Assembly (NCBI RefSeq): GCF_040892595.1
Contig: NZ_JBFRYB010000001.1
Coordinates: 682,001 to 746,000 of the forward strand
DNA: 64,000 nucleotides
Source of the DNA: Zhongshania sp. R06B22
Lineage (GTDB): Bacteria > Pseudomonadota > Gammaproteobacteria > Pseudomonadales > Spongiibacteraceae
Reading direction: 5' to 3'
A program made the position numbers and the translations under genes. How positions within the stretch are numbered: the stretch's first letter is position 1; each line of letters starts with the position of its first letter. The notes under the pieces were generated by a model, which worked only from the letters and a program-made list of their open reading frames with translations, was not told the DNA's origin and made no database searches. Positions 38,909 to 51,763 of this stretch are shown here, piece after piece.

Positions 38909-38933
38909 GCCCCTCATTTGAGGGGCTTTTTTT
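38909..38933 (+). terminator. Rho-independent terminator after ahpF
   Basis: The 7-bp stem GCCCCTC / GAGGGGC with a four-base loop is followed by seven T residues. Confidence 0.92.
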
Positions 38934-39373
38934 GTCTGGATATTGATCAATGGAAAGTCCATTTCCTCTTGCCTTTTCACTGAGAGGAGGTAGCTCACTG
39001 GCATTAGCTCTCTGCCATTAATACGACTATCTGCTAACAAAGCTGCATATCAAGCTAAGCGAGTTTCGGGCATAAGCAAAACACTATGTCGACAATGCAC
39101 CCCTAATTTGACATAAGGGCGGTCTGGGGCATATTTCGGCACCAATGTGGTATTTATCGAGCGAATAAGCTGTTTAGGCAGCTTGTCAGTGAACTACTAG
39201 AGCAGTTTAATCGTCAGTGAAAATGGCGCTAATATAAGGAAAATCAGCCAGGCTTCTGGCTTTTGAGCCGAATAGCGCTTATTATTCGGCTCATATTGTG
39301 ATCCAAATGCAGGCTTTATTTGGCTCAAGGCCATTACAGCAATTTGTCATAACCACGCGCAGTGTACGCAACT
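38934..39373. other. Gene-free left border of the defence island
   Basis: About 440 bases with no convincing reading frame. It contains the perfect palindrome at 39265-39292 just ahead of the Fic gene. No direct-repeat attachment site or integrase remnant could be identified by eye. Confidence 0.5.
39265..39292. promoter_or_regulatory. Perfect 10-bp inverted repeat upstream of fic
   Basis: GAGCCGAATA / TATTCGGCTC around an eight-base spacer. No U-run follows, and it lies about 80 bases before the Fic ATG, so an operator is more likely than a terminator. The Fic protein has a C-terminal winged-helix part that could bind it. Confidence 0.5.
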
Positions 39374-40537
39374 ATGCAATACATCTGGCAACTTCCGGCT
39401 TGGCAGCAGGGCACCGCCCCAGCATTTCGCTGGCGGGAAGAAACCTTGCGCCCGCAGCTAGAGCGAGTGCGCCTGCAACAGGGGCGGCTGCTCGGCCAGT
39501 CAGAATCCCTAAGCACAGAAAACCAGGCCGCGCACTTGGATGCGCTAGTACAAACCGCCCTGCGCACCAGTGAAATAGAGGGCGAAAAGTTGGATGCCGC
39601 CTCCGTGCGCTCCTCGGTCGTTCGGCACCTGGGGCTAGAGCAGGCAGCTTTTGTCGGCACCCCGAAAACCGAAGCACTGGTTAAACTGCTGATCGACGCC
39701 TCCAGTAATATTCATCAAGCCCTTAGTCAAAATACACTGTGCCAATGGCAGGCAGCCTTATTCCCTGAAGCGCCAGAACTGCAAACCCTGTATACGCCTG
39801 TTTTAAAAGGCCAGTTGCGCAGCGATGCGCCTATGCAAGTCATCTCTGGTCGTATGGATAAACCCACTGTGCATTTTGAGGCGCCGCCTCGGCAAGGCTT
39901 GGAAGATGAGCTACAGCGTTTTACCCAGTGGTTTAACAAACCATCTGCGGATGTCGACGCCTTGCTGCGTGCTGCCATTGCCCATCTGTGGTTGATTACA
40001 TTACACCCCTTCGATGATGGCAATGGCCGTGTTACCCGCGCCGTCACCGACCGCGCGCTGGCCCAAGCCGAATCCAACAGCATTCGTTATTATTCCCTAA
40101 GCGCCGCCATCATGGCCCGCCGCAAGGAATACTACGAGCAACTGGAGCAGGCGCAAAAAGGCGACCTGGAAATCACTCCATGGCTACAGTGGTTTTTATC
40201 GGTATTAGAAGATGCCATTGCCAAGGGCCTGCAACGCTTTGAACGGGTACTCAATAAAACCCGCTTTTGGCAACAGCACGCGCAAACCGTATTAAGCGAG
40301 CGCCAGATCAAGGTACTTAACCGTCTGTTAGATACGCAAGGCGAAGAATTTATCCAAGGTATCAGCGCCAGTAAATATCAGGCAGTGGCCAAGGTCAGTA
40401 AAGCCACCGCCACCCGTGAGCTGGCTGACCTTGTACAAAAAAATTGTTTAGCGAAATTATCCGGTGGCGGCCGCAGTACCCGTTATGCATTGGCCATTTC
40501 CCTTACAGCAAACGTCACCCAAATAAATAATACCTAA
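39374..40537 (+). CDS. Fic/DOC family protein with DUF4172 and winged-helix domain
   Basis: 387 residues from the ATG at 39374 (a GTG four codons upstream is possible). An N-terminal DUF4172 region (1-80) carries the inhibitory motif TSEIEG at 65-70, with Glu69 placed to block ATP, as in class II Fic proteins. The Fic core has the catalytic motif HPFDDGNGRVTR starting at His211. A winged helix-turn-helix follows at about 310-380. Fic enzymes usually transfer AMP to a hydroxyl of a target protein. Its stop codon TAA shares its last base with the ATG of a ruined hsdM gene, so it belonged to a type I restriction operon. Confidence 0.92.
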   Translation: MQYIWQLPAWQQGTAPAFRWREETLRPQLERVRLQQGRLLGQSESLSTENQAAHLDALVQTALRTSEIEGEKLDAASVRSSVVRHLGLEQAAFVGTPKTEALVKLLIDASSNIHQALSQNTLCQWQAALFPEAPELQTLYTPVLKGQLRSDAPMQVISGRMDKPTVHFEAPPRQGLEDELQRFTQWFNKPSADVDALLRAAIAHLWLITLHPFDDGNGRVTRAVTDRALAQAESNSIRYYSLSAAIMARRKEYYEQLEQAQKGDLEITPWLQWFLSVLEDAIAKGLQRFERVLNKTRFWQQHAQTVLSERQIKVLNRLLDTQGEEFIQGISASKYQAVAKVSKATATRELADLVQKNCLAKLSGGGRSTRYALAISLTANVTQINNT

Positions 40538-40787
40538 TGAGCACACAAGATCTTGTCGCCAAGTTATAGAGTCTCTGTAGCCTGCCTGCGCGGCGACGGC
40601 GTGAGTATCACGAGTACATCAACAAGCTTACCTTTTTAGGATGTTTAAAAATAAACTGCTTACCAAAATAGATAAGCTCGAATGGAGCAGCGCCAAGAAA
40701 GAAGGGTTGGGCGATAGTTACGAAGGTCTGCTGGAACTTAAGGCCACTGGGAAAACGTCCGGCGTATTAAAGGCGTTGGTCGGCTAA
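40537..40787 (+). pseudogene. Decayed hsdM (type I methylase) remnant
   Basis: The ATG at 40537 starts MSTQDLVAKL, a standard HsdM start, but the next codon is TAG where the family has Trp. With compensating frameshifts the text continues as a CLRGDGVS and YHEYINKLTFL segment, again HsdM-like. A later frame (40641-40787) reads KIDKLEWSSAKKEGLGDSYEGLLE, corresponding to the region before the GAGQYFTPR motif of HsdM. Most of the gene is gone. It belongs to a different HsdM subfamily from the intact gene at 49500. The following 300 bases to hsdR hold no recognisable gene. Confidence 0.82.
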
Positions 40788-41089
40788 TGGCAGAGCGGTA
40801 CTAGCCACGAATACGGTAATAAACGATTGCTAATTTGTATCCGATTGATTCGATGCGCTTTTATAGGTTAAGCATGATTGCACATATGGGTATTGTGTGG
40901 TCTAGTCCATACTTGATTTTCGTTTCCTAACGGAAATTTTGGGCAGAGAGGATTTGCTCAACGCATCCCAGAATAATTACAAAATATTTTGATCCTAGGC
41001 GCAAACTTAAACATGATGGTCATTGCAGATTCTGGCTACCAAGTTTATCTCGGTCTTCACAGGGAGAGCCGTGCTCGGCATAAGTGACG

Positions 41090-43918
41090 ATGACAGCACC
41101 CACAGACAAGCTAGAAACGCAAACTCGCCAAGAAATCGATGAAAAACTCACTGTCGCTGGTTGGGTGATCCAAGACAAAAAACGCATCAATTTACATGAA
41201 AGCCTTGGTGTTGCCGTTCGTGAATTCGATACTGACACTGGCCCTGCCGACTACATGCTGTTCATAGCCGGTAAAGCCTGTGGCATCATTGAAGCCAAGC
41301 GCGAAGGCGCCAGTCTCGGCCACGTCGCCGAGCAATCCGGCCGTTACGCCACCTCTAAAACCAAGCATATCCACCGCTGGGCGGCCAATGATGAAGCTCT
41401 ACCATTCTTGTATGAGGCCACCAATCACGTCATTCGCTTTCGCGACGAACGCGACCCAGCGCCACGTTCGCGCAACATTTTCCATTTTCACCGGCCAGAA
41501 ACCCTAAAAGACTGGTTAGAACAAAACGACACCTTTCGTGCTCGCTTACAACAGCTGCCCGCACTGAACACCATGGGTCTGCGTGATTGCCAAATCGACG
41601 CCGTCCACGGTATCGAAGCCTCACTCAAACAAGGTAAGCAGCGCGCCTTATTACAAATGGCCACCGGTGCCGGAAAGACCTTTACCGCCTGCACCCAAGT
41701 CTATCGCCTGGCCAAATTCGCTAAAGCCAAGCGCGTATTGTTTCTGGTTGATAGAGGCAACTTAGGCCGCCAAGCCCACAAAGAATTCCAGCAATACACC
41801 ACGCCCGACGATGGCCGCAAATTCACCGAGCTCTACAACGCCCACATCCTTGGCCCCGGTGGCATTGGCGATGAAATAAAAGTCACCATCTCCACCATCC
41901 AGCGCATGTACTCACAATTGTGCGGCAAAGAAATGGATGAAGAGATAGAAGAGCATTCCACTTTTGAGATGGGCGCCAGCACCATCGCCGCGCAGGAAGT
42001 GGTCTACAATCCCCATATTCCGATAGAAACCTTCGACGTCATCATCATCGATGAATGTCACCGCTCCATCTACAACCTGTGGAGCCAGGTGCTCGATTAC
42101 TTTGATGCCTTCTTAATCGGCCTTACCGCCACGCCCACCAAAAAAACCATCGGCTACTTTCACCAAAACGTGGTTTCGGAATACACCCACGAAGATGCCG
42201 TCATCGACCGCGTTAACGTCGGTTACGACATCTACCGCATTAAAACCGAAAAGTCCGAGCAGGGCGGTTTAATGGAGGCCGGTACCAATATCGAAGTGCG
42301 CGACCGCCTCACCAAACAAAAACGCTGGGAGCTACTCGACGAAGACGAGCAATACCAAAGAACCCAGCTCGACCGCAGCGTGATCGCCCCCAACCAAATA
42401 CGCACCGTGATTCAAACCTTTAAAGACCGCTGCCTGCCCGAATGCTTCCCCGGCCGCAGTTGGGTACCCAAAACCCTATTCTTCGCTAAAGACGACGACC
42501 ACGCCGATCGCATCGTCGATGCTATCCGTGAGGCCTTCGGTGAAGGCAACGACTTCTGTAAAAAAGTCACCTACCGTGTTGGCAAAAAAGGCGCAGAACA
42601 AACCATCCAAGAATTCCGCACCAGCCCACGCCTGCGCATCGCCGTCACTGTCGATATGATCGCCACCGGCACCGACATCAAACCGCTGGAGTGCCTGGTG
42701 TTTATGCGCGATGTTCGCAGCCAAGCCTATTACGAACAAATGAAAGGCCGTGGCACCCGCGTCATCGCTGATGACGTACTGCTTAAAGTCACACCCGATG
42801 CCCCCACCAAAACCCGCTTTGTGCTGGTCGATGCCGTCGGCGTCACCGAAACCGACAAAACCGAAACAAAAAGTCTTGAGAGCAAACCCTCAGTCACTAC
42901 CGAAAAACTCATGCAGCAAATCGCCATGGGCGATAGAAGCCCCGAAAGCCTGCAAACCCTGGGCAATCGCTTAATCCGTTTAGATATGAAACTCAGCGAC
43001 GGCCAGCGTAAGCAAATCAATAAATTATTAGAAAAGATAATGGGCCATCCTCTCCCTAAGGGAGAGGACCGAGGAGAGGGTATAAAGGGTACAGAAGAGG
43101 CCAACCTAACCCTCGTCGCGGCCAAATTAGTCCACGCAGGCAATACCGATTTTCTCGCTGAACAACTCAAAGCCCAATACGGCAGCGATGAAGTCAGCGA
43201 CGAACAACGCAAAGCCGTCTATGAACCACTGGCCGACGCGGCCATTACACCCTTTCATAACCCCGATTTGCGTGAGCTATTAGAAACCCTGCGCCGCGAC
43301 ACCGATCAACTGGTCGACGACAGCGCCGATGAATTGCTAGAGGCCGGCTACGATGCCGAAAAAGCCCAGGGCATCATCAGCCGCTACGAAAGTTTTATTA
43401 AAGAACACAAAGACGAACTCGATGCCATCCAGCTGATCTACGCCAAACCCTATACCCAGCGCCATTTAAGCTACCAACAAATTGAAGAGCTGGCAGAAGA
43501 AATAAAACAGCCCCCTTACAATATCGCACCATTAGAGGTGTGGAAGGCCTACGAGCAACTGGAAAAGGCCAAAGTCAAAGGCGTACCCGCCAAAGAGCTA
43601 CTTACAAATATTGTTAGCTTAATTAGGTTTTCTACCGGTTTAAGTGATGTGCTGGAGCCATTTCCTGAGTTGGTCAATCTGCGTTTTGAGACTTGGTTGG
43701 CTCAGCAAGAAGCAGAGCAAGGAGCCTTCAGCGATGAAAAGAGAGTGTGGTTGCAACGCATCAAAGACCAAATCGCCAATAACGCCGAATTTGAAATGGA
43801 TGATTTTGAATTAATACCCGAATGCAAAGGCGAAGGTGGGCTATTAAAAGCACAACAACTTTTTGGTGAAGAGCTCAATACAATCGTCCAAGAATTAAAC
43901 GGGTACTTAATCGCATGA
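41090..43918 (+). CDS. hsdR: Type I restriction enzyme R subunit (HsdR)
   Basis: 942 residues from the ATG at 41090; a GTG two codons upstream is possible and neither has a strong ribosome site. The N-terminal nuclease domain has the Asp...EAKRE metal motif (ADYMLFIAGKACGIIEAKRE in part). The SF2 translocase follows: Walker A ATGAGKTF, DECH box IIIDECHRS, motif III LTATPT, and motif VI MKGRGTR. A C-terminal helical region (about 700-942) binds the methylase. Residues around 654-670 (HPLPKGEDRGEG) are encoded by a palindromic repeat inserted in frame. It cuts unmodified DNA with HsdS and HsdM. Confidence 0.95.
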   Translation: MTAPTDKLETQTRQEIDEKLTVAGWVIQDKKRINLHESLGVAVREFDTDTGPADYMLFIAGKACGIIEAKREGASLGHVAEQSGRYATSKTKHIHRWAANDEALPFLYEATNHVIRFRDERDPAPRSRNIFHFHRPETLKDWLEQNDTFRARLQQLPALNTMGLRDCQIDAVHGIEASLKQGKQRALLQMATGAGKTFTACTQVYRLAKFAKAKRVLFLVDRGNLGRQAHKEFQQYTTPDDGRKFTELYNAHILGPGGIGDEIKVTISTIQRMYSQLCGKEMDEEIEEHSTFEMGASTIAAQEVVYNPHIPIETFDVIIIDECHRSIYNLWSQVLDYFDAFLIGLTATPTKKTIGYFHQNVVSEYTHEDAVIDRVNVGYDIYRIKTEKSEQGGLMEAGTNIEVRDRLTKQKRWELLDEDEQYQRTQLDRSVIAPNQIRTVIQTFKDRCLPECFPGRSWVPKTLFFAKDDDHADRIVDAIREAFGEGNDFCKKVTYRVGKKGAEQTIQEFRTSPRLRIAVTVDMIATGTDIKPLECLVFMRDVRSQAYYEQMKGRGTRVIADDVLLKVTPDAPTKTRFVLVDAVGVTETDKTETKSLESKPSVTTEKLMQQIAMGDRSPESLQTLGNRLIRLDMKLSDGQRKQINKLLEKIMGHPLPKGEDRGEGIKGTEEANLTLVAAKLVHAGNTDFLAEQLKAQYGSDEVSDEQRKAVYEPLADAAITPFHNPDLRELLETLRRDTDQLVDDSADELLEAGYDAEKAQGIISRYESFIKEHKDELDAIQLIYAKPYTQRHLSYQQIEELAEEIKQPPYNIAPLEVWKAYEQLEKAKVKGVPAKELLTNIVSLIRFSTGLSDVLEPFPELVNLRFETWLAQQEAEQGAFSDEKRVWLQRIKDQIANNAEFEMDDFELIPECKGEGGLLKAQQLFGEELNTIVQELNGYLIA
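43049..43067. repeat. Palindromic repeat inside hsdR
   Basis: CCTCTCCCT A AGGGAGAGG, followed by a partial echo GAGGAGAGGG. This is the core of a dispersed palindrome family common in gammaproteobacterial intergenic regions. Here it is in frame in a linker of HsdR. Confidence 0.75.
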
Positions 43919-44016: not shown

Positions 44017-44052
44017 ATAGTGCAGGAGCTTAATGGATACCTCATTGCATGA
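44017..44052 (+). pseudogene. Duplicated 3' end of hsdR, fragment
   Basis: Twelve codons read IVQELNGYLIA and stop, the same as the last 11 residues of the intact HsdR ending at 43918. Eight of the eleven shared sense codons differ, all synonymously (for example CAA/CAG, TTA/CTT, GGG/GGA). Its TGA overlaps the hsdS ATG (ATGA), the usual coupled arrangement, so this fragment looks like the tail of the hsdR that originally preceded this hsdS. Confidence 0.85.
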
Positions 44053-45932
44053 GTGTTGTTGAAAGTAACCCGATTAACGAGATTTTAAAAATCCGGCGCG
44101 CTACTTGGGAGGAGCTTGAGCTTGAACGTATGGATAGGCGCGGCATGCTCCCTAAATCAGATGCTTGGAAAGCAAAATATAAAGAACCGCGAAGCGCAGA
44201 TATTGATGGCGTTGGTGCCCTCCCTGAGTATTGGTATTGGGCATCAGTTGCCCAAGTTGGATTTGTAATCAGTGGACAGACTCCTAAGGGCGTTGCTGAT
44301 GTCGAGGGTGAAGCTGGTATACCTTGGTTCAAAGTTGGGGACATGAACACAGAGGGGAATGAGCTGTTCATCCATAAAGCAAACACCTATCTTACTGTGG
44401 GCCAGCTGAACTCATTAAAATTACATGTACAGCCAGAGGGTACGGTGATTTTCCCTAAAAGAGGCGGTGCAATTGCTACTAATAAGAAAAGGGTTCTTTT
44501 TCAGCCTAGTGGTTATGACTTAAATACGATGGGTGTTTTCCCCGTTGGAGTTGACAAGAAGTACTTTTGGTATTGGTTTCAAACAGTTGATCTGGGCGCT
44601 ATAGCGGACGGAGCGATAGTGCCACAAATAAATCATGGGGATATTGAGCCGCTATTAATACCGGTCGCCCCGCCCGAACAACAAAAACGCATCGTCGCCA
44701 AAATCGAAGAACTTTTCTCCCATATCGACGCCGGCATAGCCGCCCTCAACAAAGCCAAACAACTGCTCAAACAATACCGCCAATCCGTCCTTAAGGCCGC
44801 CGTTACCGGTGAGCTCACCAAACACCTGCCTGGCCGGCAGGCAGGATGGCGTGATCCTCTGTTTAGAAATAAGTGCGGGAAGCTCGTGCCCAAAAATAGC
44901 GATAAATACTTTGCTTATGTTTTGGAGTGCGAGAATGGTTCTCTTTATAAGGGGTTTTCCAAGAACCTTTACATGCGAATAGATCAGCATTTATCTGGAC
45001 AAGGCGCAAAATGGACTAAAGAGCACAAGCCTGTTTCGATTATCCATTTCGAAGAATTTGAAACCGAAAAAGAAGCCGTTGAGCGCGAAAAGTATTTTAA
45101 GTCGGGTTCCGGTCGTGAATGGATAAACGAAATACGTGATAAAAATAATCGAAGGTTTGAACCCGCCAGCCAACTGCTAGAACGCATCCTGCTAGAGCGC
45201 CGCCAAAAATGGGAAGCGCAGCAGCTTGAGCAGTTTAAAGCGAAAGGTAAAGTGCCGAAGGATGATGGGTGGAAGGGGAAGTATAAAGACCCTGAAGCTT
45301 TTGATTCTGAGTTTGAAGTCCCTGAAGAGTGGATTGTTTGCCAGTTTGAGCAGCTAATTTTGGAATTAAAAAATGGTATTTCAAAAAAACCGTCCGAAGC
45401 TAAAGGCTTAGCAATACTTCGAATCAGTGCCGTTAGGCCTATGGTTGTATACAAAGATGATGTCCGTTTCTTACCTGAAAATTTTGATTCAAAGGACTTT
45501 GAAATAGAAGATGGTGACTTGTTGCTTACTCGTTATAACGGAAACCCTGAGTTTGTTGGGGTGTGCGGAAAGGTAAAAGGACTGGAAAATAAAACGGTTT
45601 ATCCAGATAAGTTGATGAGAGCTAGACCTGTGAGCACAAAAAAACTCTGCACTGATTATTTGGAATTATCTCTTAATTGTGGGATTTCCAAAGATTTTAT
45701 TCGTTCAGTAACGAAAACGACAGCAGGGCAATCCGGAGTGGCCGGACGTGATGTGAAAAAATGTCCAACTGTATTGCCGCCTTATGACGAGCAAGTAGAG
45801 ATAGCAAATATCGTTTCTGGAAAACTTGAAGCTATGAAACGACTAGATGTTGAGGTTGATATCCACCTCTTGAAAGCAGAGAAAAACAAACAGTCGATTT
45901 TGGCTTCGGCATTCAGTGGAGCGCTACAGTGA
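44049..45932 (+). CDS. hsdS: Type I specificity subunit (HsdS) with inserted GIY-YIG domain
   Basis: 627 residues, longer than usual for HsdS (400-500). Target-recognition half 1 (about 45-205) is followed by the central conserved helix (APPEQQKRIVAKIEELFSHI and VLKAAVTGELTKH, about 208-257). Then comes an insertion of about 115 residues: LPGRQAGWRDPLF from a palindrome, and a GIY-YIG nuclease domain (about 287-360) with AYVLECENGSLYKGFSKNL, the YMR arginine and EAVEREKYFK. HsdS resumes at EPASQLLERILLERRQKW, with recognition half 2 (about 425-580) and the C-terminal helix. It sets the DNA target of the complex. The stop overlaps the GTG of the next gene. Confidence 0.9.
   Translation: MSVVESNPINEILKIRRATWEELELERMDRRGMLPKSDAWKAKYKEPRSADIDGVGALPEYWYWASVAQVGFVISGQTPKGVADVEGEAGIPWFKVGDMNTEGNELFIHKANTYLTVGQLNSLKLHVQPEGTVIFPKRGGAIATNKKRVLFQPSGYDLNTMGVFPVGVDKKYFWYWFQTVDLGAIADGAIVPQINHGDIEPLLIPVAPPEQQKRIVAKIEELFSHIDAGIAALNKAKQLLKQYRQSVLKAAVTGELTKHLPGRQAGWRDPLFRNKCGKLVPKNSDKYFAYVLECENGSLYKGFSKNLYMRIDQHLSGQGAKWTKEHKPVSIIHFEEFETEKEAVEREKYFKSGSGREWINEIRDKNNRRFEPASQLLERILLERRQKWEAQQLEQFKAKGKVPKDDGWKGKYKDPEAFDSEFEVPEEWIVCQFEQLILELKNGISKKPSEAKGLAILRISAVRPMVVYKDDVRFLPENFDSKDFEIEDGDLLLTRYNGNPEFVGVCGKVKGLENKTVYPDKLMRARPVSTKKLCTDYLELSLNCGISKDFIRSVTKTTAGQSGVAGRDVKKCPTVLPPYDEQVEIANIVSGKLEAMKRLDVEVDIHLLKAEKNKQSILASAFSGALQ
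44825..44845. repeat. Palindrome at the start of the hsdS insertion
   Basis: The arms CCTGCCTG and CAGGCAGG flank a five-base centre. It lies exactly where HsdS similarity stops and the GIY-YIG insert begins, encoding LPGRQAG in frame. Confidence 0.75.
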
Positions 45933-47023
45933 GTGAGAGTGATTTAAGGGAAATAAAGCCGAATCCTCCGCATGGTCTTTACAGCGATGAGCATGTTATC
46001 GCTGGTATTCCAATGCCAAAACAGTCGAGGATTGAAAAGTTTTCTGACAGTGAGTGGGAGGAGTTTTCCGAAGAATATGCATATTCACTTAAAGGTTCTT
46101 ATCATAAGGTTCAAAGGTTTGGCGGTGCTGGTGATAAAGGTTTAGATGTAGCTTGTTTCATTAAAGACCATACTTTTGAGGGTGGGTGGGTTAACTATCA
46201 GTGCAAATTTTATGATCATTCTTTATACCCAGGCGATGTCTGGCTAGAATTTGGGAAGGTCATCGTATATTCGCATAGAGGGGATTATCCCACTCCGAAT
46301 AAGTATTACTTTGTTGCGCCACAGGGTTTAGGCACTTCGTTAGCAATGTTAATTGCAAAACCTAATAAACTAAAAGAAGAAATTAGAAAAAACTGGGCTG
46401 ATAAAATTGAGTCTAAAATATCAACAACTTTTAGTGCGCCCCTAACTGATGAGCTTTTAGATCACTTTGAAACCTTTGATTTCGGTATATTTGATTCTAT
46501 TTCAGTTTTAGATATGGTCGCGAGTCATGCTAAAACACCATTTCACGCAGTGAGATTTGGAGGTGGGTTGCCACCAAGACCAGAGAGTGAGTCTCCTCCA
46601 GACTTAGCTCATAGCAAGGAGCAGATTTATATCCAACAAATTCTATTGGCTGTTGGAGACAAGGAAAAAGTGGAGGTGGATGATAGATGGATTGATGCAA
46701 ATGGTTCGTATCAAAAGAACCTGCAAAGGCAGCGTGAAAGGTTTTATTCGGCTGAGTCTTTGAGAAACTTTTCTAGAGACAATGTGCCTCCTGGTACATA
46801 TGAAAATTTGCAAGAAGATGTCTTTCAAGGCGTTGTTGATATATGTGAAATGAGTTATCTCGATGGATTTGAACGAATGACAGCTACGGTGAATCATTCA
46901 TCAAAATTGTCTTTTGATTCGAGTCCTCTTCGTTCAGTAACAGGGTTAAAGGATAAGCAGGGTATTTGTCATCAACTAGTAAACCAAAAAAGGTTGAAAT
47001 GGGTGAAAATTGATGATGAATAA
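45929..47023 (+). CDS. ABC-3C system effector: Mrr-like nuclease domain plus ABC-3C C-terminal domain
   Basis: 364 residues from a GTG that overlaps the hsdS stop (GTGA). The N-terminal domain (about 35-200) has the restriction-endonuclease-fold pattern: a helix with WEEFSEEYAYSL, then FGGAGDKGLDV with Asp73, then WVNYQCKFYD with Gln91-Cys-Lys93, i.e. a D...QxK active site. The C-terminal half (about 225-364) resembles the ABC-3C 'CTD' domains that link effectors to a partner ATPase. With the next two genes it fits the ABC three-component conflict systems. A+T-richer than hsdR and hsdM. Confidence 0.78.
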   Translation: MSESDLREIKPNPPHGLYSDEHVIAGIPMPKQSRIEKFSDSEWEEFSEEYAYSLKGSYHKVQRFGGAGDKGLDVACFIKDHTFEGGWVNYQCKFYDHSLYPGDVWLEFGKVIVYSHRGDYPTPNKYYFVAPQGLGTSLAMLIAKPNKLKEEIRKNWADKIESKISTTFSAPLTDELLDHFETFDFGIFDSISVLDMVASHAKTPFHAVRFGGGLPPRPESESPPDLAHSKEQIYIQQILLAVGDKEKVEVDDRWIDANGSYQKNLQRQRERFYSAESLRNFSRDNVPPGTYENLQEDVFQGVVDICEMSYLDGFERMTATVNHSSKLSFDSSPLRSVTGLKDKQGICHQLVNQKRLKWVKIDDE

Positions 47024-47510
47024 AATTGAAAGATCGCCTTTTAATAGCTCTCTTGAGTCTGGTGTTAGGTCAGTGATTATTCTTCATTCGCTTTTCCCAA
47101 ATAGTGTTGATTTGCATAGGTTGGTTGACTTTGATTATTTAACTGTTCATTCAGGTGATGTAAATGGCCCTGAGAGTTTGCATGCACCTTTGCCAATGAG
47201 GGCAGGTGAGTTGCTCGTGCGAAGAGAGATTGTCGAAAAAGGACTTCTGTTAATGATGAGTAGAGGTTTGTTAACTCGTATTGCTACAGATACTGGTATC
47301 GAGTACATGGCTAGTGATAAGTCTTATTCATTTGTATCAAACCTGGCGTCACCATATTTAGTTAAATTGATTGAAAGAGCGGATTGGGTAGCTGAAAATT
47401 TTGGTGAAAAATCTGAAGTTGAAATCAAGGTAATGGTTAAAGGTTTTTTTGATCACTGGACTAGTCAATTTCAGCCTGTAAATGCAAGGTCGGGAGAGAT
47501 GCATGAGTAA
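47010..47510 (+). CDS. ABC-3C system middle component
   Basis: 166 residues (a second Met codon follows directly). It overlaps the end of the effector gene by 14 bases and the start of the ATPase gene by eight. The pattern RSVIILHSLFPNSVDLHRLVDFDYLTVHSGDV and the helical remainder resemble the small winged-helix-like middle components that always pair with ABC-3C ATPases. No catalytic motif is seen; it probably bridges ATPase and effector. Confidence 0.75.
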   Translation: MMMNKIERSPFNSSLESGVRSVIILHSLFPNSVDLHRLVDFDYLTVHSGDVNGPESLHAPLPMRAGELLVRREIVEKGLLLMMSRGLLTRIATDTGIEYMASDKSYSFVSNLASPYLVKLIERADWVAENFGEKSEVEIKVMVKGFFDHWTSQFQPVNARSGEMHE

Positions 47511-49350
47511 TGAATTTGTTCAATTGAGAAAGCTAGCTTTCTTGGGTGATAGTAAGGAGCCTGCTGTATTAGGCTTTGATGCTGGATTGAATGTTGTGTG
47601 TGGCGCTTCAGATACAGGAAAGTCATTCTTAATTGAGGCAATTGACTTTATGTTAGGTGGTAATAAGGATCTAAGAGATATACCTGAGCGTGTTGGCTAT
47701 GATCGAATTAGATTAGCTGTGGAACTGGCCAATGAAGAAAAGTTTACCTTCGAAAGAAGCTCGGAAGGCGGTAATTTCAATTTATATAAGGATATTATTG
47801 GGGACGAACTTCAGTTTGATGGAGGTGTACCTATAAAACAAAAGCATGGTCATGGTGCGACTGATAACCTATCTGGTTGGTTGTTAAAAAGAATTGAGTT
47901 GTTTGAGAAAAGGCTTAGAAAGAACGCTCACGGCGATACTGTAAGTCTTAGTTTTAGGCACCTAGCTAGATTGGTTGTGGTGGATGAGAGTGAAATAATA
48001 AAAAACACATCACCTTTTTTAACAGGTAATCCAGTATCTAAAACAGCAGAATATTCGGCTTTAAAACTTTTGTTAACTGGTGCAGACGATAGCGCGATTG
48101 TTCCGGCAGAGAGAGACGAGACTAGGATTGTTGGCCAAGCCGCAAAGGTTGAGTTGCTTGATCAAATGATCGCAGACCAAAGCGATGAGATAGAAAGTAG
48201 AAACATCGATGAAGATGAGCTTAATGAACAATTGGAAAAGCTATTTTCCTCTATCGATCAAAAGAAGGAAGAGATGGCGAGCTTTCAATCGAGTTTAAAT
48301 ACATTGATAGAGCAGCGGCGAAATTTTCTCGACTCAAAGGAGGCAATTAGAAGTCGAAACTCCGAAATTGATGAAATGTTAGAGAGATTCGGTTTGCTCA
48401 AGCAGCATTATAAAAGTGATATTGAAAGACTGAAAGGCGTGGAGGAAACTGGATCTCTCTTTGTTCATTATGACAAGTCACCTTGTCCTTTATGTGGGAC
48501 TTTAGTAGATGAGAAGCAACATGATGAGGATTGTGACGGTAACGTGGAAGGCGTTGTATTGGCAGCAAAAATGGAGATAGAAAAAATAAACATTTTAGTT
48601 TTAGATCTAGATGGAACTGTAGGCGAGCTGGAAGTAGAAAAAGTGAATCTTTTCCCGATGTTGAGAGGATTTGAGGAGGAGTACAAGGTCGTAGATGAGA
48701 AAATACGTGATGCAGTTTCACCTGATTTTCAAAATAGCCAGCGAGAATATAGCGCCTTAATGGAAAAAAGGAATGAAGTGATACTCGGGCTAGATGTGTT
48801 TTTACGTTTGGCGAAGCTAGAGAAAAAAAGGGTTGAGTTAGCAAATGTGGATACTGAAGATGTAGAGGAGATAAAGCCTACAAAGTTATCCAAGGCGACA
48901 CTAAACAAATTCTCTAAGGTGGTTGAAAATATTCTGACGGAGTGGGATTTTCCTGAATCTTCAAATATCTATTTTGATGAGTCTGAAAAAGATTTTGTCA
49001 TAGCGGGTAAGCCAAGAGGTAGTCGTGGGAAGGGGCTTAGGGCAATAACGCATGCGGCAGTTACTATTGGTTTAATGGAATATTGCAAGGAGAACTCTTT
49101 GCCACATCCGGGTTTTGTTGTTTTGGATTCACCCTTGCTGGCATATTACAAGCCTGAGGGTGATGACGATAATTTGGTTGGGTCTAATTTGAAAGATAAA
49201 TTCTATTCTTACCTTATTAATAATCACTCCGATAGCCAGATTATTATTGTCGAGAACGAGCACCCACCAGAGCAATTTGAAGAAAATATGAAATTACATA
49301 TTTTCACTAAAAATCCTCAAGAAGGCAGGTTTGGTCTTTTCCCTATGTAG
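47503..49350 (+). CDS. ABC-3C ATPase (DUF3732-like, SMC/Rad50-type)
   Basis: 615 residues from the ATG at 47503 with GGGAGAG just upstream; a start seven codons earlier is possible. Walker A is GASDTGKS at 34-41. Long charged coiled coil follows (about 205-325 and 345-435) with a Rad50-like hook CPLCG at 328-332. The C-terminal ATPase lobe has a signature-like GSRGKGLRA and Walker B FVVLDSPLL (near 537-545). Such ATPases likely sense DNA structures and gate the effector nuclease. Confidence 0.82.
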   Translation: MSNEFVQLRKLAFLGDSKEPAVLGFDAGLNVVCGASDTGKSFLIEAIDFMLGGNKDLRDIPERVGYDRIRLAVELANEEKFTFERSSEGGNFNLYKDIIGDELQFDGGVPIKQKHGHGATDNLSGWLLKRIELFEKRLRKNAHGDTVSLSFRHLARLVVVDESEIIKNTSPFLTGNPVSKTAEYSALKLLLTGADDSAIVPAERDETRIVGQAAKVELLDQMIADQSDEIESRNIDEDELNEQLEKLFSSIDQKKEEMASFQSSLNTLIEQRRNFLDSKEAIRSRNSEIDEMLERFGLLKQHYKSDIERLKGVEETGSLFVHYDKSPCPLCGTLVDEKQHDEDCDGNVEGVVLAAKMEIEKINILVLDLDGTVGELEVEKVNLFPMLRGFEEEYKVVDEKIRDAVSPDFQNSQREYSALMEKRNEVILGLDVFLRLAKLEKKRVELANVDTEDVEEIKPTKLSKATLNKFSKVVENILTEWDFPESSNIYFDESEKDFVIAGKPRGSRGKGLRAITHAAVTIGLMEYCKENSLPHPGFVVLDSPLLAYYKPEGDDDNLVGSNLKDKFYSYLINNHSDSQIIIVENEHPPEQFEENMKLHIFTKNPQEGRFGLFPM

Positions 49351-49359
49351 AGTTGCTAA

Positions 49360-49503
49360 ATGAGCGCATCAGAAATAGTCAACAAAGTCTGGAACTACGC
49401 TCACGTATTGCGTGACGATGGCGTATGCTGCGGTCTTTTTGTATGGCTGAAGGCTCCCGTCGAAAAAATTACTGTTAATATGATTGAGAAAAGTTATCTA
49501 TGA
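49360..49503 (+). pseudogene. Duplicated 5' end of hsdM, fragment (46-codon frame)
   Basis: From the ATG at 49360 the first 22 codons encode the same residues as the first 22 of the intact HsdM (MSASEIVNKVWNY...DDGV), but 12 codons differ, all at synonymous positions. After codon 22 similarity ends and an unrelated 24-codon frame runs to a TGA that overlaps the ATG of the intact hsdM. It looks like the start of a second hsdM allele left behind by a recombination. Confidence 0.88.
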
Positions 49504-50990
49504 GTGCGTCTGAGATCGTAAACAAAGTCTGGAACTACGCCCACGTCTTACGCGATGACGGCGTAGGTTATGGCGACTATGTAGAGCAGATAACATTTCT
49601 CATTTTCCTGAAAATGGCCGATGAACGCGAAGAGTCCGGCCAACAAGTCGCCGTTCCTGAAAAATACAGCTGGTCAAAACTGGTCAAGCTCGACGGTGAT
49701 GCGCTGGAAATTCAGTACCGCCATACCCTCGAAGAGCTGGGCAAGCAAAACGGTATGTTAGGCACTATCTTCCGCAAGGCGCAAAACAAAATCCAAGACC
49801 CGGCCAAGCTCGAACGCCTGATCAAGCTCATCGAAAAAGAAGCCTGGTCAACTTTGCCGGTGGACGTTAAAGGTGAGATCTATGAAGGCCTGCTAGAGCG
49901 CAACGCTCAGGATGTAAAAGGCGGCGCCGGCCAATACTTTACCCCGCGCGCCTTAATTCAGGCCATGGTCGACGTAATGCAGCCCAAGGTAATGGACACC
50001 GTCGCCGACCCTGCAACCGGCACCGGCGGCTTTTTGTTGGCGGCTTATGATTATATGGCCCCACAAGCCACCTCAAAAAAAGAACAAAAGCATTTACGTG
50101 AAAGCGCTCTGCGCGGTAATGACATCGTCGATAGCGTCACCCGCTTATGCGCCATGAACCTCTACTTACATGGCATAGGCAGCGCCGACGGCGAATGCCC
50201 TGTTATTAGTCAGGATGCCTTAGCCAAAGAAGTGAATGAAAAAGATTTGGTGGATATCGTCTTAGCCAATCCACCCTTCGGTAAAAAAAGCTCCATTACC
50301 ATTATTAGCGAAAAAACCGGTAAAGCCGAATCTGAAAAACTCACTTACGAGCGCGAGGACTTCTGGGCCACCACCTCCAACAAACAACTTAACTTCGTTC
50401 AGCATATCTATAACATGCTAAAAATCGACGGCAAAGCTGCCGTCGTTGTACCCGATAACGTCCTCTTCGAAGGCGGCGCCGGCGAAACCATCCGCAAAAA
50501 TTTATTAGAGCGCACCAACCTCCACACCATTCTGCGCCTACCCACGGGTATCTTTTATGCACAGGGCGTAAAGGCGAATGTTATTTTCTTTGACAATAAA
50601 CCTGCCTCAAAAAACCCCTGGACTAAAAAGCTCTGGATCTATGACTTTCGCACTAATATCCATATGACCCTAAAAACCAATCGCCTCAAAAAGACCGACT
50701 TCGAGGAATTCATCAAACTCTACAAACCCGATGACATTAGCAAACGCAAAGCTACTTGGGATGGCGCAAAAGGACAGGGCAGATGGAGAAGCTACAGCTA
50801 TGAAGAAATCATAGCCAGAGACAAAACTAACCTCGATATCTTCTGGTTGAGAGATGATTCGCTAGAAGATACCGAAAACCTGCCTGCGCCTGAAGTATTG
50901 GCCGCTGAGATAGTTGAACAGTTGGCGGCAGCGCTGGAGGAGTTTCGATCTGTTGAAGAGGTGCTTTTAGGCAATGGCGATGGCTTATGA
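49500..50990 (+). CDS. hsdM: Type I restriction-modification methylase (HsdM)
   Basis: 496 residues. The N-terminal helical domain (about 1-130) is followed by the N6-adenine methylase core: GAGQYFTPRALI, SAM motif DPATGTGGF near 178, and catalytic NPPFG near 258. It methylates the HsdS-defined target. The stop of the upstream 46-codon frame overlaps its ATG. hsdM is last in the order hsdR, hsdS, three ABC-3C genes, hsdM. Codon use resembles hsdR rather than the ABC-3C genes. Confidence 0.96.
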   Translation: MSASEIVNKVWNYAHVLRDDGVGYGDYVEQITFLIFLKMADEREESGQQVAVPEKYSWSKLVKLDGDALEIQYRHTLEELGKQNGMLGTIFRKAQNKIQDPAKLERLIKLIEKEAWSTLPVDVKGEIYEGLLERNAQDVKGGAGQYFTPRALIQAMVDVMQPKVMDTVADPATGTGGFLLAAYDYMAPQATSKKEQKHLRESALRGNDIVDSVTRLCAMNLYLHGIGSADGECPVISQDALAKEVNEKDLVDIVLANPPFGKKSSITIISEKTGKAESEKLTYEREDFWATTSNKQLNFVQHIYNMLKIDGKAAVVVPDNVLFEGGAGETIRKNLLERTNLHTILRLPTGIFYAQGVKANVIFFDNKPASKNPWTKKLWIYDFRTNIHMTLKTNRLKKTDFEEFIKLYKPDDISKRKATWDGAKGQGRWRSYSYEEIIARDKTNLDIFWLRDDSLEDTENLPAPEVLAAEIVEQLAAALEEFRSVEEVLLGNGDGL

Positions 50991-51283: not shown

Positions 51284-51763
51284 ATGGCACTAGCAATCAT
51301 CATGATCTTGTATGTCAGCGTTGGCGTTTTGGCTGCGGTTGGTTCGATGTATCTCTCCTACCGTTTTGTGCCGGTTCGGTTCGAGGCTGCTTTGTATGGC
51401 GTGTTTCTCATTTTTATCGCTGCGTTCTATATTGCATTCACTTCCTATTTTGGCGACGAGTCGGCATGGCGTCTCGAAACAACAGCGATTGCTGCCTTTG
51501 CTATTTTGGCTTGCCTCGGCATAAAGTTTCCAATATTGCTGGTCGCCGGCTATGCACTGCATGGCGCGTGGGATCTTCTTCATGAGGTTCATCAGCACAG
51601 CGGAGCAGACGTGTTCGGCGGTAGGCAATCCACGCAGGTACCACTCGCCTATGGCGCATTCTGTGCAACCTTTGATTTGGCTGTGGCGACGTACATTGTG
51701 TATCGACGCAATGACTGGCTCGCAGCTTGGGCGTCATCGGGAACAAAGAATATTGCTGCGTAG
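51284..51763 (+). CDS. Integral membrane protein, DUF6010-like
   Basis: 159 residues with about five hydrophobic segments (5-27, 34-56, 67-82, 85-97, 125-143). The motif YALHGAWDLLHEVHQH is the most conserved-looking element and matches what I recall of the DUF6010 family. The function is unknown. It stands alone after the defence island, with about 290 gene-free bases on each side in which I see nothing. Confidence 0.72.
   Translation: MALAIIMILYVSVGVLAAVGSMYLSYRFVPVRFEAALYGVFLIFIAAFYIAFTSYFGDESAWRLETTAIAAFAILACLGIKFPILLVAGYALHGAWDLLHEVHQHSGADVFGGRQSTQVPLAYGAFCATFDLAVATYIVYRRNDWLAAWASSGTKNIAA

What the first reader, a model, noticed from the sequence alone, without database searches (positions are those of the whole stretch)
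40537..40787. Ruined hsdM of another subfamily beside the Fic gene
The sequence begins as an ordinary HsdM but has TAG in place of a conserved Trp codon, paired frameshifts and a large internal deletion. It shows that an earlier type I system with Fic occupied this locus before or together with the present one. The Fic gene may be a survivor whose partners are lost.
Basis: seen in the sequence. Interest (0 to 1): 0.55.

Follow-up and report, generated by a model that had tools for sequence, protein, structure and literature searches.

The report
Fossil restriction operon with surviving Fic
Beside an intact Fic gene this bacterium keeps the broken tail and head of two restriction-modification genes, so the Fic gene looks like the survivor of an older, dead defence operon with a newer one now standing next to it.

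Summary
Window 40537-40787 is a ruined hsdM of another subfamily than the intact hsdM at 49500: codons 1-39 and about 103-140 match intact HsdMs, with TAG at the conserved Trp, a +1 and a -1 shift, and about 63 codons missing. (1) The other side of fic carries the last 29 codons of an HsdR of the matching family (34 bits; 500 shuffles reach 23). The order hsdR tail - palindrome - fic - hsdM head is that of an intact operon with a related Fic (G112). (2) A sister species has the same fossil at the same site, one lesion shared, with a different defence system behind it. (3) The fic frame is constrained. Where a fic-hsdM pair is half broken, hsdM is the broken one in five lineages of five, a weak excess. 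Against: a general link between hsdM ruins and Fic seen in one sample failed in the combined sample. Partial hsdM heads recur upstream of intact hsdM in 4 of 64 loci; whether they mark cassette exchange is open.

The parts
39128..39220 (+). fossil tail of hsdR: last 29 recognisable codons and stop, directly at the left edge of the insertion
   Evidence: tblastn of HsdR C-termini: 34.3 bits (L144), 33.9 (L146), 32.7 (L145), 48-55% over 29 aa; best of 500 dinucleotide shuffles 22.7; sister G017 36.6 bits; no hit in the sites of G003, G005, G008
39266..39291 (.). palindrome AGCCGAATA-N8-TATTCGGCT upstream of fic, probable operator
   Evidence: half-site in 56 of 102 upstream regions of Fic relatives (some genomes twice, many Pseudomonas), whole palindrome in 32 of 102; 1.65 regions with a half-site expected from mononucleotide shuffles; position
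39362..40537 (+). intact fic, 391 aa, DUF4172 + Fic domain, HPFDDGNGRVTR and TSEIEG motifs
   Evidence: Pfam, motifs, dN/dS 0.31 against G017
40537..40787 (+). ruined hsdM head: codons 1-39 (40537-40653) and about 103-140 (40650-40763); TAG at 40567, +1 and -1 shifts
40788..41083 (.). stretch without a match to the proteins or DNA of the loci fetched
   Evidence: blastx and blastn of 40780-41095
41084..43918 (+). present hsdR (EcoEI type)
   Evidence: Pfam EcoEI_R_C, ResIII
44049..45932 (+). present hsdS with a GIY-YIG domain in the middle
   Evidence: Pfam, PADLOC
45929..49350 (+). three genes: ABC-3C components by Pfam; the first and third match LmuA and LmuB of Lamassu in PADLOC
49360..49425 (+). 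second, short hsdM head in front of the intact hsdM
   Evidence: 82% DNA identity over 66 bp to the local hsdM, 88% over 74 bp to that of G188, 92% over 65 bp to a head in G598
49500..50990 (+). present intact hsdM, 496 aa
   Evidence: Pfam N6_Mtase 226 bits, HsdM_N

Best explanation
The site between ahpF and the gene at 51284 once held a type I restriction-modification operon in the order hsdR - operator - fic - hsdM (and probably hsdS), with an hsdM of the MSTQDL subfamily. Before this species and its sister separated, or in an exchange between them, hsdM already had a frameshift and hsdR was reduced to its tail. The fic gene in the middle, with its own palindrome and motifs, stayed open and constrained. 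Each lineage then lost more of hsdM in its own way and got another defence system behind the fossil: here a type I module with Lamassu-like genes, in the sister a set with a DrmD-like helicase. Shown: both fossil ends, the order, the sister locus, the constraint on fic. Inferred: the lost hsdS, and that Fic now acts alone as a self-inhibited AMP-transferring enzyme that controls its own promoter, perhaps in phage defence.
For: HsdM identity; HsdR tail of the matching family on the other side of fic, well above shuffles, absent from three sites without this insertion, starting where homology to G003 and G005 ends (39128-39133); sister G017 with the same tail, fic and a broken hsdM sharing one -1 shift but another system downstream; intact operon with a Fic of the same class and similar palindromes between hsdR and fic (G112); G117 with open fic amid broken hsdM and hsdS and a broken hsdR that is cut by the contig start; fic constrained.
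Against: No hsdS remnant was found in the gaps searched. The HsdR tail is only 29 codons. The hsdM ruin is 80% identical between the species while third positions of neighbours are 68-71%, so it may have been alive for part of the time, and the shared shift could be coincidence. Among 101 regions behind Fic relatives an hsdM or piece was found only in G017 (present twice) and G036, so this Fic usually lives without hsdM. Remnants and Fic are not associated in the combined sample.
Confidence: 0.82

Rival explanations
1. No complete type I system ever stood here: fic arrived as a cargo piece that already carried a clipped hsdR tail and hsdM head from a donor operon elsewhere.
For: The tail starts exactly at the left edge of the insertion; cargo with clipped hsdM heads is seen elsewhere; no hsdS remnant here.
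Against: Window and sister keep different parts of hsdM, to codon 140 and codon 76, so a longer hsdM was here and decayed in place; a ruined operon still recognisable as such exists in G117.
Confidence: 0.15
2. The hsdM head is kept because it encodes a short peptide that restrains Fic, as the 47-residue AS1 does for Sofic in E. coli.
For: AS1 is encoded directly downstream of Sofic (PMC12249575, passages and section 2.1 read).
Against: The window's head is closed by TAG after 10 codons; in G036 the start codon is gone; no credible HsdM similarity lies behind five E. coli fic genes (best E 0.15). The AS1 sequence was not seen.
Confidence: 0.02
3. Sequencing or assembly error in a normal hsdM.
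For: Frameshifts and a stop can be errors.
Against: About 63 internal codons and everything after codon 140 are absent; the sister has its own ruin with one shared shift; the genome is rated 99.99% complete.
Confidence: 0.01

Closest known systems
Type I restriction-modification operons with a fic gene between hsdR and hsdM
   Same: Gene order hsdR - fic - hsdM, short or overlapping fic-hsdM junction, palindromes between hsdR and fic in G112
   Different: hsdR and hsdM are ruined and hsdS is absent here
Sofic, single-protein Fic defence (class 2 Fic)
   Same: Fic core motif and an inhibitory-type motif; PADLOC SoFic model E 2e-44
   Different: DUF4172 instead of the Fic_N and SoFic-like_C domains that the operonic Fics L145 and L149 show; 53.9 bits against the NCBIfam SoFic cut-off of 550
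Insertion of restriction-modification genes with long target duplication (Kobayashi and others; PMC3031569, passages read)
   Same: Partial direct copies of a gene beside inserted genes, as with the hsdM head at 49360
   Different: The head at 49360 is closer to hsdM sequences of other species (88-92%) than to the local copy (82%), which suggests a donor rather than a local duplication

Membership tests
HsdM (type I modification subunit) | Sequence homology to HsdM | tested here: met
   54-59% and 66-68% to HsdMs L144-L146 in two pieces, E 1e-9 to 6e-15; E 7.5e-12 in a genome search
HsdM (type I modification subunit) | Open reading frame with the N6-methylase domain | tested here: not met
   Stop, shifts and loss of everything after about codon 140; the N6_Mtase model finds in this locus only the gene at 49500
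Type I restriction-modification operon | hsdR, hsdM and hsdS together | tested here: not met
   Only an hsdR tail and an hsdM head remain of the old operon; no hsdS piece in the gaps searched
Class 2 Fic enzymes | HPFx[D/E]GN[G/K]R catalytic motif | tested here: met
   HPFDDGNGRVTR at residue 215
Class 2 Fic enzymes | Inhibitory motif [S/T]xxxE[G/N] N-terminal to the Fic core | tested here: met
   TSEIEG at residue 69; the motif pattern is recalled, and a six-residue pattern this loose also occurs by chance (SLSTEN at 49)
Sofic (NCBIfam NF046030) | Score above the curated cut-off | tested here: not met
   53.9 bits against 550
Sofic (NCBIfam NF046030) | Protection against phage | not testable with these tools
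   Needs plaque assays
Insertion with long target duplication | Duplicated target compared with an empty site | tested here: inconclusive
   Heads at 49360 and in G188, G598, G468; no locus with the same flanking genes and no cargo was compared

The most novel reading that the evidence does not exclude
The start of hsdM is a recurrent exchange joint of type I operons: cargo genes (Fic, Lamassu-like genes and others) sit just upstream of hsdM, move with the donor's hsdM head attached, and leave such heads behind as scars. The fossil at 40537 and the head at 49360 would then be scars of two separate events in one locus, and heads could be used to read the history of cargo turnover. Of 64 loci with an intact hsdM, four hold five heads, every one starting at codon 1, on the same strand and upstream of the intact gene, against one C-terminal copy in one other locus.
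Probability: 0.3. Interest if true: 0.6.

Novelty: new member of a known kind. Interest (0 to 1): 0.36.

Why it matters
It is a readable fossil: two species share the ruin but carry different present systems, so the order of loss and gain at one defence hotspot can be followed. It shows a fic gene outlasting its restriction operon, which fits Fic as an independent module rather than a helper of HsdM. The conserved palindrome gives a direct handle on how this Fic class may be controlled.

Tried and rejected
Pfam, NCBIfam and PDB searches with the short hsdM pieces were uninformative. Ten literature searches listed no title or abstract start on hsdM heads as exchange scars or on Fic outliving type I operons; I looked at the listings only, in an open-access library, and the ranked list was cut short in most of them. 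One search (the palindrome as words) gave 961 papers, of which 20 were listed and none fitted. Two papers were opened: PMC3031569 (passages) and PMC12249575 (passages and section 2.1).

A functional peptide from the hsdM head was considered and rejected (stop after 10 codons; no credible HsdM match behind five E. coli fic genes). A first idea that the whole fic segment had moved recently between the two species (low dS) was dropped: low divergence covers only about 39000-40250, while the 3' part of fic is as diverged as the flanks.

The early impression that hsdM ruins are linked to Fic (6 of 7 against 13 of 40, p 0.013) did not hold in the combined sample (6 of 15 against 16 of 66, p 0.33). 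Choices behind these counts: in the order sample (49 places) two heads beside an intact hsdM (window 49360, G188) were left out, and G115 was added. In the class sample 37 of the 46 places were examined; the nine others were two already counted (G000, G091) and seven weak matches, six of them in frames of 801-895 aa; three heads (two of G598, one at the contig end of G314) were left out as lying beside another copy. Frames of 350 aa or more counted as intact. G549, counted as intact without Fic, has only 4 bases upstream on its contig. For the 16 intact pairs the Fic matched in one frame over most of its length, but stops inside were not checked one by one.

Full report
What is there. Downstream of ahpF (ends 38882) lie an intact fic (39362-40537), the ruined hsdM of the finding (40537-40787), a stretch without a match in the loci fetched (40788-41083), and a present defence module: hsdR, hsdS with a GIY-YIG domain in its middle, three genes that Pfam calls ABC-3C components (PADLOC matches the first and third to LmuA and LmuB), and an intact hsdM at 49500-50990. 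The genome holds no second copy of the ruined stretch, and the N6_Mtase model finds in this locus only the hsdM at 49500.

The ruin is real. Against intact HsdMs of relatives, codons 1-39 and about 103-140 are recognisable at 54-59% and 66-68% identity for the closest group (L144-L146), E 1e-9 to 6e-15. Searched as a piece across 293 genomes of the order, the second part hits intact hsdM genes at up to 67% over 39 residues (E 7.5e-12; 32 of 293 genomes, the own one included, at E 0.01 or better). The TAG replaces a tryptophan codon; a +1 and a -1 shift compensate each other; about 63 codons are gone between the pieces. The subfamily is not that of the intact hsdM at 49500 (38% in the second piece, E 0.11).

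A second fossil. The gap between ahpF and fic contains, at 39128-39220, the last 29 recognisable codons and stop of an HsdR. Its best matches are the HsdR C-termini of L144, L145 and L146, the loci whose HsdMs are closest to the ruin; the score is 34.3 bits, against at most 22.7 in 500 dinucleotide shuffles; the sister species gives 36.6 bits. In G003, G005 and G008 no such tail is found, and homology to G003 and G005 stops at 39128-39133. So the insertion begins inside the old hsdR, and the order is hsdR tail, fic, hsdM head.

The sister. In G017, same genus, the genes before fic are collinear, fic is 93% identical by the genome search (91% by blastp), and it too is followed by a broken hsdM start, recognisable to codon 76. 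One -1 shift is at the same codon in both; the TAG, the +1 shift and the internal loss are private to the window's species. Behind it stands another defence set: a SNF2-type helicase best matched by a DrmD model, a protein best matched by part of a pAgo model, and two more large proteins that I read as a type III-like methylase and restriction subunit (not scanned). Of the 15 other genomes of the genus with ahpF, G003 and G008 have no gene of 70 codons or more between ahpF and the homologue of 51284, G005 has another Fic, a small gene and a Schlafen-type helicase gene there, and in the remaining 12 that homologue does not follow or other genes lie next to ahpF. The site is a hotspot with turnover, and the fossil is older than both present systems.

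Did it descend or travel? fic between the two species has dN 0.058 and dS 0.18, while five flanking genes have dS 0.44-1.6. The low divergence is confined to about 39000-40250 (92-97% DNA identity); after that, third-position identity in fic falls to 71%, close to ahpF and ahpC (68%), and the hsdM ruin is 80% identical over 103-118 bases. A recent exchange over the first part of fic on top of an older shared fossil fits best. In the 3' part amino-acid identity without the last 15 codons is still 90%, so the frame is constrained; the last codons are not. The ruin is somewhat more alike than third positions, so it may have been alive for part of that time.

Relatives. Intact hsdR-fic-hsdM-hsdS operons exist in the genus (G014, G017) with another Fic class, Fic_N plus SoFic-like_C in the one scanned (L149). 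A Fic of the window's class (52% identical) sits in an intact operon in G112, overlapping hsdM, with two imperfect palindromes of the same kind between hsdR and fic. In G117 hsdM and hsdS are in pieces, hsdR is broken and also cut by the contig start, and fic is open (380 codons). Broken hsdM behind an open fic is also seen in G187, G027 and G036; in G036 the Fic is shortened and has HSF for HPF.

Counts. In the order sample 13 of 40 intact hsdM genes and 6 of 7 orphan remnants have a Fic gene directly upstream (p 0.013; 5 of 6 by lineage, p 0.028). In the class sample it was 3 of 26 and 0 of 8. Together 16 of 66 and 6 of 15, p 0.33. No general link between Fic and hsdM ruins is shown. Where a fic-hsdM pair is half broken, it is hsdM in five lineages of five (two-sided p 0.06; one-sided 0.056 weighted by gene length), a hint only. 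Among 101 regions behind Fic relatives (a few genomes twice) an hsdM or a piece of one was found only in G017 and G036.

How it most likely works now. The hsdM and hsdR fragments probably do nothing. A terminator-like hairpin follows ahpF (38909-38926; that scan found 4 such sites with 2.8 expected), so fic is probably transcribed on its own. The palindrome at 39266-39291 keeps its arms but not its spacer among Fic relatives (half-site in 56 of 102 regions, whole palindrome in 32, against 1.65 regions with a half-site expected), as a protein-binding site would; with a C-terminus weakly like a DNA-binding regulator domain (PF22168, E 5e-4, below its cut-off) self-repression is the simplest reading, untested. 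Catalytic and inhibitory-type motifs are present. [quoted passage not shown] the window's protein is not a Sofic equivalog by NCBIfam, so a role in defence is inferred.

A wider pattern. In front of the intact hsdM at 49500 lies another hsdM head, 49360-49425, 82% identical in DNA to the local gene, 88% to the hsdM of G188 and 92% to a head in G598. G188, whose HsdR and HsdM are about 94% identical to the window's, carries other genes between hsdS and hsdM and its own head. Of 73 loci scanned, 64 hold an intact hsdM; four of these have five heads (window, G188, two in G598, one in G468), every one from codon 1, same strand, upstream; four are 86-95% identical to the local protein and the one of G468 only 39%; one other locus (G379) has a C-terminal copy downstream. 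The loci were not a random sample of type I systems. Insertions of restriction-modification genes with long target duplications are known (PMC3031569, passages read); whether these heads are that or donor scars is open.

Noticed in passing
window 44049-45932: The present hsdS carries a GIY-YIG nuclease domain (residues 286-354) between its two recognition halves; the hsdS of G188 lacks it in Pfam.
   Followed up: partly
window 43050-43067 and 44825-44845: Palindromic repeats inside genes: one in hsdR, read in frame and also present in G188 but not in G195, and one in hsdS shortly before the GIY-YIG domain.
   Followed up: partly
window 49360-49425; L202 11533-11621; L317; L332: Partial hsdM heads between cargo genes and the intact hsdM.
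   Followed up: partly
window 39266-39291: Palindrome AGCCGAATA-N7/8-TATTCGGCT upstream of DUF4172 fic genes across several genera; some loci have two copies in tandem.
   Followed up: partly
window 45929-49350: Lamassu-like (ABC-3C) genes sit between hsdS and hsdM of the present type I module; G188 has helicase genes there instead, with HsdR and HsdM about 94% identical.
   Followed up: partly
L202 4551-7336: The hsdR of G188, about 94% identical to the window's, is split into two frames.
   Followed up: no
L268 6482-7693: Behind the ruined operon of G117 stands a second, open Fic of the DUF4172 class (52% to the window's) with palindrome half-sites near its start.
   Followed up: no
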